Shown piece after piece: positions 12,312 through 35,000 of a stretch of 64,000 nt of DNA. Position 1 is the first letter of the stretch, and the number at the start of each line of letters is the position of its first letter. The notes under the pieces are model-generated. The model was not told the origin of the DNA. It saw only the letters and a list, made by a program, of their open reading frames with translations, and made no database searches. The DNA comes from Pilatotrama ljubarskyi (lineage: Eukaryota > Basidiomycota > Agaricomycetes > Polyporales > Polyporaceae). Location: the NCBI GenBank assembly GCA_022385805.1, contig MU277690.1, forward strand, positions 86,404 through 150,403, written 5' to 3'. Both the position numbers and the translations under genes were made by a program.

Positions 12312-12632
12312 TTTGCGTCCAGGAGCTCAGAGGGCAGGTTGACCGTCTGAACGAAACACACCAGAGACGAGGTGCAGAGACAAGGTGTAGCCGGACAGAG
12401 ACAAGGCCGTAGACGCAACCTAGCGCTCAGCTTCGCATGCGCTCACCTGCCACAACGCGTGACTGCTTCCGCTTCCGGGCACGCGAAGGCTGTCACACTA
12501 GGATTGTGGCGGTGTGGCCTAGTCTCCCTTCACAGTCAGAGCCCATCCAGTTACCGCTGTCCGGTACGATTGCGTTCATAAGATGCCCTGCAACGAACAT
12601 GAGGAGACTTGAGACCCACGGGGGACAAAAAG
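12312..12632. other. RAE1 5' flank
   Basis: No gene seen. The stretch carries short repeats of CAGAGAC(G/A)AGG near 12362-12406 in the RAE1 leader/promoter. Confidence 0.4.
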
Positions 12633-12721
12633 CGACCAACCTGGGAGTCGAACCCAGAATCTTCAGCTGTTTACGTTAACCACACCGGAAACTGACGCCT
12701 TAACCATTAGGCCAGTCGGCC
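12633..12721 (-). tRNA. tRNA-Arg(CCG), intron-containing
   Basis: Read on the minus strand, acceptor GGCCGAC pairs with GTTGGTC (two G-U). The D arm is GGCCTAATGGTTAAGGC, the anticodon stem TCAGT/GCTGA, and the loop TTCCGG... with anticodon CCG. An intron of about 16 nt follows position 37. The T arm is CTGGG-TTCGACT-CCCAG, and the discriminator base is G. Total length is 89 nt. The fold is complete, so the gene should be functional. Confidence 0.88.
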
Positions 12722-25915: not shown

Positions 25916-27404
25916 ATGTCTACTCACAAGAACCTCATCCGTCTCAAGGCTGCCACCCAGGAATACGAGTGGGGAAAGACTGGCAGTGCCTCCCTCGCAG
26001 CGCGGCTCGGAAAGAACGCTATTGGTCATGGGTTCCAGATAGATGAGAGCAAGTCGTATGCAGAGGTATGTGCTCACCCCCTTCATATGTACACGAAAGT
26101 GGGGTTCATGTCATGAGCATGTATTGTAGGTTTGGATGGGTACGCATCCGAACGGCCCGGCTCACCTATACGACGACCCGTCAACGTCTTTACTCTCCTT
26201 GATATCCTCTGACCCGACCTTTTACCTCGGCGAGACCCTCGTGCGGAAATGGCCCTCCACGACACATGTTCCGTATCTCTTCAAAGTGCTCTCCATCAAG
26301 AAGGCGCTTCCTCTCCAGGCCCACCCCGACAAAGGCCTCGCGGAACAGCTGCAACTCAAAGACCCGTCCAACTTCGTGGACGCGAATCACAAACCCGAGA
26401 TAGCTGTAGCGATCGGAGAGCCCCTCGCCATGACGAGCTCAGGTACCGAAGGTGGCGACGTTCACGTCGGCGACGAGGATACCGCTTTCACCGGCTTCGT
26501 GGGATTCCGCCCGCTCGAGGATATCAAGACGTACCTCCAGAAGGTCCCGGAGATTGCTAACGCGATCGGTGATGCGATGCTAGTGGCTTCGTTCGCTCAA
26601 AGTCCGTCGACGGACCTCCTCAAGCAGTTGTATGGCAAGCTCCTCAAGCGCGGGGTGGAAGCTCGTGAGGAGGTCGCCGCTGCCATCGCAAAACTCGAGC
26701 AGCGCATAAAGAAGGGCGGAAGCCTTGGCGTGCCCAATGGTGAAGAGCTTGCACGCCTGGTCCTCAAGGTCAACAGCCAGTACCCCGGCGACGCCGGCGT
26801 CCTTGCCACTACATTTTTCATGAACTTCGCGAAGCTGAAGAAGGGAGAGGGCATCTACATCGGTGCTGATGATATTCATGCGTATCTTGAAGGAGGTATG
26901 TCGGCTGCACCACTGAGAATTCAACAGTACTCATGTCTTGTGATAGATATCATCGAGTGCATGGCGATCTCTGACAACGTCGTCAATGCCGCGTTCGATG
27001 CGCCGGAATCGCTCGCCTCGCAAGTTAGCACTTTCGTCGACATGCTCACTTATACCGCTCGCCCGGTCTCGCACTGGTCTTTGCCGCGTGAGGCGTATCC
27101 GCACTCGCGTGAAGGTCGCACCTCGAAGTATGATCCACCGATGGAGGAGTTCGTCGTTCTCGGCACCATGCTCAACGGCAAGAGCGCGAAGACGGAGCAT
27201 TTGACCGCGGTCAAAGGCCCGACGATTGGTATCGTCACCAAGGGCCGTGCCAGGATTGCGGTGAGCAGGGGTAATGAGCAGTTGGATTTGGATGAGGGTG
27301 GTGTAGTCTTCATCCCGCCGGGCAACGACATTCGCGTCGAGCTGCTGGAGGGCCGTGGTGCAGAGGGCGCAGGAGAGATATGGTGGTCATGCTTCGGAGT
27401 TTGA
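25916..27404 (+). CDS. Mannose-6-phosphate isomerase, type I
   Basis: Interconverts fructose-6-phosphate and mannose-6-phosphate in the cytosol, feeding GDP-mannose for glycosylation and cell-wall synthesis. The ATG at 25916 opens MSTHKNLIRLKAATQEYEWG, a typical PMI start. Zinc-site motifs are LPLQAHPDK (Gln, His), DANHKPE (Glu) and GADDIHAYLEGD (His; split by intron 2). The active-site region PIGIVTKGRARI and C-terminus GEIWWSCFGV-stop are also as expected. Two GT-AG introns are present, at about 26067-26129 and 26896-26946. Length is about 450 residues, normal for fungal PMI. The gene is convergent with the lyase/mevalonate kinase gene, with only about 170 bp between stop codons. Confidence 0.96.
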
Positions 27405-27575: not shown

Positions 27576-30500
27576 TCAAACATAAAGCCACTTCCCGCGT
27601 CCCGATGCCCATTTGGACAACTCCTCCACATCAACGGTCTCGAAGCGGCGACGGATGGAAGGTCGCGGGGGCTCTTCCCCGCCATTCAGTGCGGGGGTCA
27701 TCGGGGGCGAAAGCGGCGGTGAAGCCTCGTCTTCTGTGTCGACCGCGATGGGGTCGTACGGCGAGAGGATGCCTAGACCGGATCCGCCGACTGCCGTCAC
27801 GTACGGCCTATAGCCCTCTGCTTCCAGTGCGGAGATGAGAGACTGCAGGGCGTCGTCCGAGAAGTCTGCAGAGGTGGAACAGTAAGCACGGGCAGTACCG
27901 AAAAAGTCGCCGCAGGGACATACCATCCGGGACAAGAGTGACGGCACAGCCGCCACCTCCAGCGCCAGTGAGCTTCGTGCTGAGGCGGTAGGGCGGGGCT
28001 GCGGTCATGGCACGAATGGCCTCCAGGGCCGGGTGTGACACGCCAAGGGACACTAGGTGCGCGTGGTTCTCGTCGATCAGAGCCTGTGTGTGGGGATCAT
28101 ATCAGCATCGATGCTGAGCTGAACGATACGCTAGAGGACATACCGCGAGACCAGACAGGAGAGCACCGCGCGGCAACTCGGGATCTGCGAGCGCACGCCG
28201 CGCCTCGGTGCTGATAACTTGAATAGCGTCCAGCAGTCGACCCACAAACTCGGGCTCCGCGATCTTCTTGCGCCCGACGCCCGCCACGAGCGCCTTCGTA
28301 TCGCGCGGAACCTTCGAGTCGACGAGCAAGAACCGCAGCGAGCGGAAGCCCTGGATCTGGTCCATCCCGCTGCGCTTCCCAAACCCGGGACGCACGTACG
28401 CGAGCGCACCGCCAAAGACCGCGACGGAGTTGTCGACGCCGCTCGGGTTGCCGTGCAGCACCTTCTCGGCGACGAAGGCCCACCGGTTCACCTCCTCCGC
28501 GATCTCCGGCGGAATGGCGCGACGGCCCTTGTGGGATAGGTGCACGTGACCGGGGTCTCCAGGCGCCGTGGGCGGTCGGGTAGGGGGCGGGACGGTGGGC
28601 AGCTCGATGCGCTGGTGGAGGATGAGCAGCGCAGTTGCGATGCAGACGGAGAAGGAGGCAGAGGAGCCCAGTCCGGCGCCGATGGGGAGGGTCGAACGAC
28701 AGACGAAGTGGAAAGACGGCCTGCCCAAGCTGGTTAGTCGTTGGCCGAGGTGATGACACGAAATGCGGCTCACCTATGGCTACTGTAGGTCATCATCATG
28801 TACAGGTAGAGAAAAGCGACTGAAGCCGCATGAGTCTTCGGCGGCATTTGCGACTCCGGAGGGAGGGCGCGAGCTTTAATTGCATCCACTACTCGTATAT
28901 CTAAGGACTCTGGGTGCTCGTCTCCCTTGGGTACGGGTACGACTGCGTCCCAAGGCAGGTCGTCTATGTCCCATTCGTGCTGGTAATCGTTGATGTCCTT
29001 GAAGTGCACAGAGACTTTGTTATCGTAGCGAGGGGATGTCAGGCCGTAGCATCGTAGGTCTACAGAAGCTGCAACAGCCGTCTTTGTCGAACGTTAGAGC
29101 TCACTTCTCATCAGATAATGCCCAGAGCCTTACCACACCATGAACCACGGCATGCTCGCCGAACAAGATGACCTTGCCAGGAGCGCTGATGAACCACTCC
29201 CTGGTCTCCCGCTGGGGGGCAGTCCTTGGCTCGCCAAGCGCAAGCTTCTCGACGGCACGGCTGATAGGGTTCGGAATCCTCACGTAGTCATTCGCAGCGT
29301 ACGTGATAGCACCGGCTTCGATTAAGGCGTGACGGAGATCGTCGAGCAAATCCGCCGGGTCCTCAATACCGACACAGAGGCGGATCAAATCCTCCGGGAG
29401 GCCACGGGCTGCGCGGACAGCAGGATCGATGGACGCATGACTAGAGAGCAGTGAGTATCTATAGACGCGGGAGACTGCTCAGATACATACGACATGACAC
29501 AGGGCATACTGATCAAGCTGTTCACACAACCGAAGCTGACGCTGATGCCCCAAAGGCGAGTAGCGGCGACAATGCGTTCGCTCAACTCCTTGTCGCCGGT
29601 CTCAAAGGAGAGGACGGCGCCGTAGCCTATTGATGCGATCAGCTACGCCACAACCGTCAAATAATTGAACTGACCGTCTGAGATACGATCATGAATCTCC
29701 TTCCCGGGGTGGTTGGGCAAGCCGGGGTAGTGAGTAACGAACCCAAGCTTCGACAGCATCTGGGCAACCAGCATGGAGGTAGACTGCTGACGATCCATGC
29801 GGATAGCCAGGGTCTTCATGCCTCGCAAGAGGAGGAAGGAATCGAACGGGGAAAGAGCGTTCCCGACGGAGTTGATGATGAACGCCATTTCCTGCATCAC
29901 CCGTCAGCTACTAGATACCCAGTAGAAGGGAAGTAAGCAAGTGTACCTTCGCTATATCGTCGCGGTTGCAAGTGATCACACCTGCCATGAGATCGTGGTG
30001 ACCGCTGAGGTACTTGGTAGCACTGTCGTATACAATGTCTGCTCCGTGTTCGAGAGGCCTCTGCAAGTACGGGCTCATCATGGTGTTATCCACCACGACG
30101 ATGGCGTCCTCGCACTTCTCCTTCACAAGAGCGCTGATTCTGGCAATATCTACGATCTTGAGTAGCGGGTTCGTGGGCGACTCCAGGAGTACCATGGCCG
30201 TTTTCCCGGGATTCAGCACAGGAATGACCGACTCCGCTTTAGTTGTGTCGACATGATGGACGGTCACGCCCATGTGGGTCCGCAGGTAGGTGAGAAGGCG
30301 GTTCGTGCCGCCATAGAGATCGTCGCCCGCGATGACTTCAGAGCCAGGCTTGAGTAGGCGGGTGATCACGTCCAGAGCGGCCATGCCGCTGGACACAGCG
30401 AAGGCATGCGCGGCAGACGAGATTTTGGCAATATGGTGTTCTGCGGCATGTCTGTGAGCACTTCTGGCGCAATAAAAAACCGCAGGGAGCGCCTAGATAG

Positions 30501-30929
30501 ATTGGGCGATGCCCTTTCCAACGCCGTCCAAATTGACTCGTCCTCCGGGGGACGGCGATCGACCCACTCTCACGTTGAGCCAGAGTCGGCCCCCCTCGTA
30601 CGAGAAACACCCGCGCATGCGAGATGGAGGTGCGCATTCTCCCCGCCGACGCACTAGCAGACTGGGCACCTACCTAGATGACTCCTCGTCGGGTTGCCGC
30701 TCCGGGTGTAATCATATCGGTTTCCGACGCCTTTGAAGGTCGCGCTCTGGTAGATAGGCACGCTCGAGCTGCCATGCTGATCCTTGTGGTCGGCATCCGG
30801 GGAGTCGACGGTAGCACAGAGGGTCGAAAAGCGGTAGGGCTGTCTAGGACGAGTCAGAGAAGGAGAGTCCGGCTCTGGGGTCGGGAGGTCATGCGCGGGC
30901 GCTTTCTTCAGCGAGCTGACCGACGCCAT
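27576..30929 (-). CDS. Cystathionine beta-lyase fused to mevalonate kinase
   Basis: The ATG at 30929 opens MASVSSLKKAPAHDLPTPEP. The first part is a Cys/Met-metabolism PLP enzyme: SVPIYQSATFKGVGNRYDYT, RSGNPTRSHLEHHIAKISSA, SGMAALDVITRLLKPG, and PLP-lysine motif SATKYLSGHHDLMAG. It ends SHASIDPAVRAARGLPEDLI and RLCVGIEDPADLLDDLRHAL. The same exon (about 29437-29131) then runs, with no stop and no Met, through a linker of about 40 residues into FISAPGKVILFGEHAVVHG, the first motif of mevalonate kinase. GHMP-kinase motifs follow: LPIGAGLGSSASFSVCIATA and KLTGAGGGGCAVTLVPD. The CDS ends GRGKWLYV-stop. Known roles are cystathionine cleavage to homocysteine, and ATP-dependent mevalonate phosphorylation toward ergosterol. 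The lyase may instead be a gamma-lyase by sequence, but conserved features fit the beta-lyase branch better. Estimated total is 900-1000 residues. Confidence 0.85.
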
Positions 30930-32049: not shown

Positions 32050-35000
32050 TCATGACACCCCCAATTTCTGGAACATGGTATCGAGAGTCTTGAACGCGAC
32101 AGGCTTGACAAGACTGAAGAATCGTCAGCGAAAGATACCACCTCCCTGAGCTTGATGTACTTACTATCCATCAACGCCAGCTTCGAACGCCCTCCGCTTA
32201 TCTTCAAGCGAAGACATGCCGGTCAACGCGAGGATGCGGGCAGGGTGCGTTTTCGAGTTGTTCGCCTCTTGTCGGCGCTTCGACTCTATCTCGCGCATCT
32301 GCGCGGTCGCGCCCACGCCGTCCAGGATAGGCATCGATAAATCCAACAGAACAACACTGAGAAGAGCGGAAATGAGAGGCGCCGCTGATAGGCATGCAGG
32401 AATGTACGTACTCGAAGTGACCGTCGTTCTCGAAGGTCCGGACGCCTTCTAGCCCATCCACGGCCTCGCGATACTCGTAGCCCTATCATGCCATAGATGT
32501 TCATCAGAATGCCCTGTCGGAGAGTGGGCGGACATACCATGTTTCTGAGCCACTTTACGCTGCATATGCTCTGATCAGCGAGAGGATGCAGAAAAGGAGC
32601 CGCAGGACACTCACAGCAAGTTACGCAAGATGCTGTTGTCCTCTACCACCAGCACTCTCAAAGGTCCACTCGGCTCCACTGTCCCGACTGACGACTTCAA
32701 CAACGTCCCACCCGTCCCAACAGAGATCGTCGAGCTGGGCGGCATATGCGACATCTGCGGCGAGCCGGGAGTGGAGTCCGTTTCGGTCTCTTCCTGCTCA
32801 GCCGGAGACGGCATATGCGCCCAACTTGTCAGCGGGTGTGCCGTCACCGCCCTCGGGCCTAATGGCGGCCTTTGCGAGAACGCCGGACTGCTGCCTCCAG
32901 TCGCCTCTTCCGAGTACCTACGCGAGAAGACACCGCTCTCCGGATGGTCGTACGAAGATGATCTGGACGGCGAGTCCGGCCGTTGGCTGTGCTGCACGAG
33001 CACGGGGCTATTGCGAGGTCCCTTGCCGATGTTCAGCGCATGCAACGATAGCTTGAGGGCGGCCACCAGCCGACACGGGCCGACGGGCTTGTACACGATC
33101 CTGCAGAAGCCGCCGATATGTTCGTACTCGTTTACGATGGCCATCAGCCTCGGGTCGCCCCGCGCGGACGAGAGAATGATGAAGGGCCGGGATGCACTCT
33201 TGCGCTCGATCGCGAGAGTGACCGGGGTTGGATCCTCGTTCACGATGACGATGTCGCCCGCCTCTGGATCCTCGGTAATCGTGAAGCCCCAATCCGACAC
33301 GATGTACTGCGTGAGGACTTTTCGGAGGAGGTGCACTCCCCGGATCGTCTCGTCGAACGCAAGCAGTGAGATCGACGGTCGGCGGCCATGATCCAGCACT
33401 TTTGCCAGTTCGGTCGAGAAGCTCGCGGATTCGCCCGGGCTGTCGACGGCTTCTGCATTGAATGTCACCTTGATCTCGGTGCCCACACCCTCGGCGCTCC
33501 AAACATCGACCTTGCCGTCGACGCTGGGCGACCGCACAATGCTGTTGACGATGGCAAGGCCTAGTCCCGTTCCAGTCTGGAGGGGGTTCTCTTGCGAAAA
33601 CGGGTGGAAGAGTTGGTTCTGTAATCATAGACGTAAGCTCGTGTGCGGCCGAAGACCCATCGATCCGCACCTTCAAGAAGTGCTGGCTGATACCCTGATG
33701 AGCAGATCTGAGTGTCAGTGTCAGGTTGATCTACGGATCGTGCTCGGCCGCACCTTGCCCGTGTCGATGACCGACAACTCTATCCTCACTCTGCCGGGCG
33801 GAGTATCGCTCGTGGGAGGCAGCTGACGTAGCATGACGTGAACATAGCCGTCCTTCGTTCAAGGAAACCATCAGCATTTGCCTTTCTTGTCTTCCCACAT
33901 GCCCTAGAGTCAGTGACGTACCGAGGTGAACTTCAGACTGTTCCCAAACACGTTCATGAGTATACGTCGAATGCCGCCCTTCTCGCATCGGAATGTCCAC
34001 CCCTGCCACCAAGCAATCGGTCAGACCACATAAGCCGATCTGAATCGCGCCGAAAGACACGTACAGCTTCACTGTGGCCGACGTCGATCACGGTCTCGAC
34101 GTGCTTGTTCGGCGCTGGGAGCGCCACGGACGACGAGCGGTCCTGCTTCGGCGGCGAGTACACGCTCCCGATCTCGCTCGTGAACATCCGCGCGCGATGG
34201 CCTATCCAGCAGCCCTCCGTCGCCTCCTCCACGAGCTGCATGAGGTTCACTCTGTTGAAACCGCGAGCAATCAGCAAACAGCTCTCGCGGCACAAGCGGC
34301 CGACGCACCTGCTGAGATGAATGACGTTTTCGACGCCGCCGGCCTTCGCGTTCCCGCTGAGCTTCGTGAAGTCCAGCACATGGTTGACCGTCTCGACAAG
34401 GGACGTGCCGCAGGCCTGCACTGTCTGCAGGAACGACGCCTGGCTGTGGTTAAGCGACGTCTCCGAGAGCAGTTCCGCTGATGCGAGGATCTGCACGGAC
34501 GGATGTGAGACACGGTCGTACTGCGCGCCACCAGGACGAAGTGAAGACTTACCCCATGTAAAGGCGTGCGGAGCTCATGCGAGATGCTGCGTTACGGCCG
34601 TCAGCGACGCAAAATACGCCGAAGAGCAAGCGTACGCACTTGGAGATGAACAGACTCTTCGCCTTGTCCGCAAGGATCATGCGGCGCTTGAGGACGGCCG
34701 ACAGGATGATGACACCTGCGGTGACGCATGTGAGCCCTCGGGATGACTGCGCGAACGTCCGCAACACCTACCGATGGCGCGCAAGTATGACAGCTCATGG
34801 CCTTCGAGCTGTCGACGGCGATCTCACATCAGCATCCGTCTGATAGACCTGTCTGACAACAATACTCACGAACGGCGTCGTGCGCTCTCCCGTACTGTAC
34901 GCGCACAGCAGGGCGAACGGCCGCTTGTCGATGTTATAAATCGGCACGGCTATAGCATCCCAACCCATGAGCCTTCCGCCCCCTCCCGCACAAAACCGGA

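What the first reader, a model, noticed from the sequence alone, without database searches (positions are those of the whole stretch)
27576..30929. Cystathionine beta-lyase fused in frame to mevalonate kinase
The exon at about 29437-29131 (minus) carries the lyase C-terminus (RLCVGIEDPADLLDDLRHAL) and continues, without a stop, through about 40 linker residues into the mevalonate kinase N-terminal motif (SAPGKVILFGEHAVVHG). There is no Met codon in frame between the two, so the kinase has no start of its own in this exon. Both halves keep their catalytic motifs. One polypeptide would join transsulfuration (homocysteine supply) with the first kinase of the isoprenoid pathway, a pairing not expected from known biochemistry.
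Basis: partly seen in the sequence, partly recalled or inferred. Interest (0 to 1): 0.9.

Follow-up and report, generated by a model that had tools for sequence, protein, structure and literature searches.

The report
Known lyase–mevalonate kinase fusion gene
This fungal gene really does join a methionine-pathway enzyme and the mevalonate kinase of sterol synthesis in one protein, but the same fusion was described in mushrooms in 2012; why it exists is still untested as far as we could find.

Summary
Nine exons on the minus strand (30929-27576) give one 914-residue frame: cystathionine beta-lyase (CBL), a loose linker, then mevalonate kinase (MVK). There is no stop, and no methionine between residues 367 and 549, so the kinase has no start of its own in the fusion exon. 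Catalytic residues of both halves are intact. It is not a mis-joined pair: 118 of the 120 homologues listed carry both domain types, and a second search lists the same architecture in Dacrymycetes, smuts, Malassezia, rusts and red yeasts (120 of 120 listed). Seven records hold a 900-925-residue frame on contigs only 95-339 bases longer than the coding sequence, probably spliced transcripts. In the window's own draft genome no other MVK was found, and none of the other lyase-family loci scores best as CBL. The fusion is in print: Liu et al. 2012 (PMC3342255) named it metC-MVK in Ganoderma lucidum and other basidiomycetes. The window holds a new member, probably from a Trametes-like polypore, of a known family. 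A bifunctional protein is well supported; neither activity was tested, and the reason for the coupling is unknown.

The parts
30674..30929 (-). Exon 1, with start ATG 30929-30927; lyase N-terminus
   Evidence: homologue P0001 begins MASASTLKK against MASVSSLKK here
29947..30440 (-). Exon 2; lyase core with the PLP lysine K228 (codon 30015-30013, SATKYLSGHHD; role recalled)
29675..29891 (-). Exon 3; lyase
29491..29626 (-). Exon 4; lyase
29134..29440 (-). Exon 5, the fusion exon: lyase C-terminus, linker and kinase N-terminus in one open frame
29203..29307 (-). Linker, residues 413-447, within exon 5; no Met, no stop; holds AVEKL at 430-434, well conserved among the 120 homologues
   Evidence: pLDDT under 50 at 426-440 in the model of homologue P0001
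29152..29187 (-). Kinase motif SAPGKVILFGEH, residues 453-464
28774..29081 (-). Exon 6; mevalonate kinase
28144..28720 (-). Exon 7; GHMP motif LGSSAS and catalytic E658, D669 (roles recalled)
27924..28083 (-). Exon 8; GHMP C-terminal domain (TGAGGGG)
27576..27865 (-). Exon 9 with stop TGA 27578-27576; variable stretch and conserved C-terminal WLYV
   Evidence: itself ended this exon at 27577, the stop is read

Best explanation
The gene encodes one bifunctional protein, the metC-MVK fusion. The N-terminal half is a PLP-dependent cystathionine beta-lyase (cystathionine to homocysteine, pyruvate and ammonia). The C-terminal half is an ATP-dependent mevalonate kinase (mevalonate to 5-phosphomevalonate). 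A linker of about 35 residues joins the two folded enzymes. Shown here: a single open frame, intact catalytic residues in both halves, the same join in species of three Basidiomycota subphyla, and no second MVK found in the window's draft genome. Inferred: that both halves are active; that the lyase forms a tetramer and the kinase a dimer, as their families do (recalled), so that the fusion makes a joint oligomer; that the fusion fixes the dose of the two enzymes together; and that the join arose once, in a common ancestor of the sampled basidiomycetes, and has been inherited vertically (Liu et al. also infer a basidiomycete ancestor).
For: Gene model. Domains: PF01053 at 48-407, PF00288 at 570-609, PF08544 at 762-825; TIGR01329 over its cut-off; PDB 1ibj and 1kvk. 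By my reading of the tables, 118 of 120 listed proteins and 120 of 120 carry PF01053 plus a GHMP domain. Of 219 distinct proteins (P0001-P0120, P0239-P0337), 214 are 800-1100 aa and 197 pass my strict two-motif filter. In those 197, lyase K228, D203, Y128 and R388 and kinase K457, H464, E658, D669 and G807 are 197 of 197; S593 is 196 S and 1 T. The 17 dropped keep TK..xGHHD and PGK, 17 of 17. Own genome: the other GHMP-type loci match homoserine kinase, diphosphomevalonate decarboxylase and galactokinase best. Seven of 13 hand-picked short-contig records (P0007, P0035, P0046, P0055, P0072, P0086, P0329) hold 900-925 aa with 95-339 spare bases, against 609 bases of introns in the window's gene. 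Published unigene of the fusion in Pleurocybella mycelia (passage, PMC3720577).
Against: No transcript or protein from this organism was examined. Most homologues are predicted proteins. The short records come from other species whose intron content was not checked. No enzyme assay of either half was seen in the papers searched. A Met occurs in the linker of 32 of 111 fusions and 54 of 86 further ones; in the latter it recurs in groups (M-N/D-R/K motif in 16, DEM in 12 of 86), so a separate kinase start is not excluded in those lineages. Three unnamed kinase records (P0155, P0183, P0197) show no clear lyase remnant before the kinase and could be separate kinases or exon-based predictions. The distance correlation of the halves (r = 0.89) would also arise for two separate vertically inherited genes. 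The model of the homologue has pTM 0.57 and also low-confidence stretches inside the lyase half.
Confidence: 0.9

Rival explanations
1. The fusion is translated whole, but a protease cuts the exposed linker, so that two separate enzymes work in the cell and the fusion is only a way of making both.
For: The linker region 426-440 has pLDDT under 50 in the model of homologue P0001 (several other stretches do too), and residues 418-444 are less conserved (mean 0.57) than the lyase (0.88) or kinase (0.77) parts.
Against: Parts of the linker are well conserved in the 120 proteins (AVEKL, and EW before the kinase), which a mere spacer would not need. Linkers in the further groups have other sequences and lengths. 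No search for cleavage motifs was made.
Confidence: 0.07
2. The fusion is a historical accident with no functional coupling: two housekeeping genes merged in an ancestor and cannot easily be parted, because the kinase lost its own promoter and start.
For: No biochemical step links the two reactions directly (established knowledge). The kinase has no start codon in the fusion exon here. The halves evolve at different rates, mean distance 0.25 against 0.43.
Against: Retention in species of three subphyla, with no named, complete, separate basidiomycete MVK among the 120 listed, is also what selection would give; this rival is compatible with the best explanation and differs only in the reason for retention.
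Confidence: 0.5
3. Artefact: two neighbouring genes mis-joined by a wrong exon call or a sequencing error that removed a stop.
For: Fused gene models in draft fungal genomes can be artefacts of this kind (general experience; no call).
Against: The join lies inside one exon, needs no splice choice, and recurs with 52-71 residues between GIEDP and SAPGK in the 120, in other genomes and in short records; published as a unigene.
Confidence: 0.02

Closest known systems
metC-MVK fusion of Ganoderma lucidum and other basidiomycetes (Liu et al. 2012, PMC3342255)
   Same: Same order (lyase then kinase), same length class (914 aa here, ~886 aa average there), only MVK of the genome and only best CBL match; no such protein outside basidiomycetes according to that paper
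   Different: Different species; no difference in architecture was seen. The join is also listed here in named smuts, rusts, Malassezia, red yeasts and Dacrymycetes; which 12 species that paper used was not seen
Lignosus rhinocerotis GME67_g (PMC4129116) and the Pleurocybella porrigens unigene (PMC3720577)
   Same: Same fusion; 918 aa in L. rhinocerotis; unigene found in P. porrigens mycelia (passages)
   Different: Other species
Stand-alone mevalonate kinase (fungal ERG12 type; PDB 1kvk)
   Same: Kinase half aligns to rat MVK over 403 residues with the catalytic motifs
   Different: In relatives listed from P0187 and P0198-P0238, the PGK motif starts within 14 residues of the N-terminus in 36 of 39 with a match (that list held two fragments of fusions, P0218 and P0220); here a lyase precedes it and it has no Met of its own
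Cystathionine beta-lyase (MetC/STR3 type; PDB 1ibj)
   Same: Lyase half scores over the TIGR01329 cut-off
   Different: The TIGR01329 match ends at residue 411 (profile 382 of 383), where the linker begins here

Membership tests
metC-MVK fusion (Liu et al. 2012) | N-terminal half is cystathionine beta-lyase (K01760) | tested here: met
   TIGR01329 536 bits, cut-off 487.5; KEGG itself not searched
metC-MVK fusion (Liu et al. 2012) | C-terminal half is mevalonate kinase (K00869) | tested here: met
   1kvk 221 bits, catalytic motifs aligned; KEGG itself not searched
metC-MVK fusion (Liu et al. 2012) | Single open frame of about 886 aa | tested here: met
   914 aa, nine exons
metC-MVK fusion (Liu et al. 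2012) | Only MVK homologue, and only best CBL match, of the genome | tested here: met
   the genome is a 173-contig draft and only exon frames were compared
metC-MVK fusion (Liu et al. 2012) | 16-residue conserved insertion in the MVK part (7 of the 12 species there) | tested here: inconclusive
   An insertion relative to rat MVK is present, but the published insert is in a figure that was not seen
Cystathionine beta-lyase | PLP lysine and substrate arginine conserved (roles recalled) | tested here: met
   K228 and R388 in the window and in 197 of 197 filtered homologues
Cystathionine beta-lyase | Lyase activity on cystathionine | not testable with these tools
   no assay
Mevalonate kinase | Catalytic Lys, Ser, Glu, Asp and glycine-rich motifs (roles recalled) | tested here: met
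Mevalonate kinase | Phosphorylation of mevalonate | not testable with these tools
   no assay

The most novel reading that the evidence does not exclude
The join is kept by selection because it couples methionine/SAM supply to sterol precursor supply: one polypeptide sets a fixed ratio of homocysteine production (for SAM, which C-24 sterol methylation and other isoprenoid methylations use) and mevalonate phosphorylation, possibly with cross-talk between the two active sites in a joint oligomer, throughout most of Basidiomycota.
Probability: 0.2. Interest if true: 0.6.

Novelty: already known. Interest (0 to 1): 0.27.

Why it matters
If both halves are active, these fungi make two unrelated housekeeping enzymes as one protein, so a mutation in, or engineering of, mevalonate kinase may also touch methionine synthesis; that matters for triterpenoid engineering in Ganoderma and its kin. 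Why such a pairing persists in three subphyla is open and directly testable by splitting the gene. As a discovery it is not new.

Tried and rejected
Artefact of annotation or sequencing: rejected, because the join is in one exon and recurs in other genomes. A second kinase gene in the genome: not found. The two other PF00288 loci match homoserine kinase and diphosphomevalonate decarboxylase over their cut-offs; the weak kinase-side match on C60 (E 7e-4) scores best as galactokinase or N-acetylgalactosamine kinase (a fragment, below cut-off). A second lyase: C48 matches cystathionine gamma-lyase 1n8p best in PDB and cystathionine gamma-synthase best in NCBIfam, with TIGR01329 at 220 bits, below its cut-off. 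Four exon frames of three loci on C41 score best with O-acetylhomoserine sulfhydrylase-type models. One fragment each of C1 and C65 scores best with other family members than CBL, weakly.

Conserved C-terminal WLYV as a fusion-specific feature: rejected, as tails with W plus aromatic residues also occur in unfused fungal MVKs such as P0198 and P0202. A linker Met as hidden kinase start: absent here; in the 120 it occurs in 34 at scattered positions; in 86 fusions it occurs in 54 and recurs in some groups, so it stays open there. The reported exception Laccaria bicolor was not tested. Structure: no support for fixed packing (pTM 0.57); no fold search was run. First reading of L016, L017 and L008 used the wrong strand and was repeated. 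Paper searches without a paper on the fusion other than the three named: (0 papers); PMC11121823 (passages) has nothing on it; PMC3468542 was seen as a listing only.

Full report
What is there. The minus-strand gene at 30929-27576 reads as nine exons with GT..AG introns and one frame of 914 codons plus stop. One search ended the last exon one base short of the stop; the stop TGA at 27578-27576 is read. Pfam gives PF01053 at residues 48-407, PF00288 at 570-609 and PF08544 at 762-825. The lyase half passes the curated cut-off of TIGR01329, cystathionine beta-lyase (536 against 487.5 bits). The kinase half matches rat mevalonate kinase 1kvk with 221 bits over 403 residues. The fusion exon is 29440-29134.

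Is it real. One search scored residues 340-914; 1013 proteins passed E 0.001 among the 7995 candidates scored, and the best 120 are listed. By my reading 118 of the 120 carry PF01053 and a GHMP domain; P0097 lacks the lyase domain and P0110 lists no kinase domain. The named ones are Agaricomycetes as far as I recognise them; only Trametes punicea was looked up. That protein, P0001, is identical to the window at 839 of 914 residues, so the window is probably from a Trametes relative (inference). Two records (P0044, P0112) and one more (P0271) are already named 'cystathionine beta-lyase/mevalonate kinase' by a source. I picked 13 records on short contigs by hand; in seven (P0007, P0035, P0046, P0055, P0072, P0086, P0329) a frame of 900-925 aa sits on a contig only 95-339 bases longer than the coding sequence. 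The other six are shorter proteins (P0070 and P0290, with 336 and 267 spare bases) or have 395-619 spare bases (P0044, P0313, P0274, P0285). The window's gene has 609 bases of introns. I take the seven to be spliced transcripts; the source labels do not say so, and they are from other species.

How far it extends. A profile of nine distant proteins listed the same architecture in Ustilago, Sporisorium, Tilletia, Malassezia, Exobasidium, Puccinia, Phakopsora, Rhodotorula, Sporobolomyces, Microbotryum, Mixia, Dacryopinax and Calocera, among others (4117 passed, 120 listed, all 120 with PF01053 and PF00288 by my reading). Six species were looked up and fall in Agaricomycotina, Ustilaginomycotina and Pucciniomycotina. 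A search with the kinase part alone, which leaves out most whole fusions by its length limits, listed mainly fragments of fusions first. Its first named complete stand-alone kinases are Hesseltinella P0187 and Gryganskiella P0198, followed by other early-diverging fungi and ascomycetes (classification recalled; 7435 passed, 120 listed). Named basidiomycete entries without a lyase domain there are short or partial (P0138, P0142, P0154, P0171, P0194), and P0154 begins in the lyase C-terminus. Of the unnamed long ones without PF01053, P0097, P0123, P0168, P0172 and P0182 begin in lyase C-terminal or linker sequence, while P0155, P0183 and P0197 show no clear lyase remnant and remain open. This is not a census.

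Are both halves kept. Of 219 distinct proteins listed (P0001-P0120 and P0239-P0337), 214 are 800-1100 aa and 197 pass a strict two-motif filter. The 17 dropped differ slightly in a motif, and 17 of 17 keep TK..xGHHD and PGK. In the 197, lyase K228, D203, Y128 and R388 are invariant; Y74 is 191 Y, 1 M and 5 gaps; R76 is 192 R and 5 gaps; kinase K457, H464, E658, D669 and G807 are invariant; S593 is 196 S and 1 T. Site roles are recalled from the two enzyme families. Pairwise distances of the two halves correlate (r = 0.89 over 19,503 pairs; 0 of 200 permutations as high); separate genes inherited vertically would do the same, so this only fails to contradict a shared history.

Linker and model. 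After GIEDP the stretch to SAPGK is 56 residues here and 52-71 in the 120; in the 86 further fusions it is 49-147, the longest in P0269, Tilletiaria. Residues 418-444 are less conserved than the domains (0.57 against 0.88 and 0.77) but AVEKL stands out (A 1.00, V 0.95, E 0.74, K 0.91, L 1.00). The AlphaFold2 model was made for homologue P0001. Mean pLDDT is 83.1 and pTM 0.57; stretches under 50 are the linker part 426-440 and also 1-11, 35-45, 48-68, 229-232 and 349-367 in the lyase half. It gives no support for a fixed packing of the two enzymes.

Own genome. In G000 (33.1 Mb, 173 contigs) no other mevalonate kinase was found. The two other PF00288 loci match homoserine kinase (TIGR00191) and diphosphomevalonate decarboxylase (TIGR01240) over their cut-offs. 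The weak C60 match scores best as galactokinase in NCBIfam and N-acetylgalactosamine kinase in PDB. Among other PF01053 loci, C48 is closest to cystathionine gamma-lyase or gamma-synthase models, C41 frames to O-acetylhomoserine sulfhydrylase models, and one fragment each of C1 and C65 to other members of the family. These are exon frames, not full gene models.

What is known. Liu et al. 2012 (PMC3342255; abstract and passages, section 10 whole) describe exactly this fusion as metC-MVK in 12 basidiomycetes except L. bicolor, as the only MVK homologue and the only gene with K01760 as best hit, infer an origin in the ancestor of Basidiomycota, and say its reason and function are under study. PMC4129116 reports it in Lignosus rhinocerotis (918 aa) and PMC3720577 as a unigene in Pleurocybella mycelia (passages only). 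No functional test of the fusion was seen in the searches, which cover only open-licence PMC papers and of which I opened four papers.

Verdict. Real, conserved, probably bifunctional, and already known. The open point is why the two are joined. Coupling of methionine/SAM supply with sterol precursors is a possible reason; a frozen accident is at least as likely.

Noticed in passing
26130-27404, + strand: A phosphomannose isomerase type I reading frame (PF20511, PF20512) runs towards the fusion gene; 171 bases lie between the two stop codons.
   Followed up: partly
32164-32448, - strand: Exon-like frame with a weak response-regulator receiver match (PF00072, 23.2 bits, below the cut-off 30.2), upstream of the fusion gene.
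   Followed up: no
12632-12721, - strand: A tRNA gene with an uncertain anticodon (ARAGORN 'tccg'; Rfam RF00005 at 12633-12721).
   Followed up: no
Proteins P0144 and P0154 (Lentinula detonsa): The listed fusion P0144 appears to lack stretches of both halves, and the same species has a second record, P0154, whose name includes mevalonate kinase and which begins in the lyase C-terminus; possibly decayed or badly predicted copies.
   Followed up: partly
Proteins P0311 and P0323 (Malassezia psittaci, M. yamatoensis): Records of 1249 and 1210 aa carry extra PF00155 and PF00266 matches besides lyase and kinase: a further fusion or a mis-joined neighbour.
   Followed up: no
Linkers of smut and Malassezia fusions: A Met recurs within the linker in groups of these fusions (M-N/D-R/K motif in 16 and DEM in 12 of 86), unlike the window; whether it serves as a kinase start is unknown.
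   Followed up: partly
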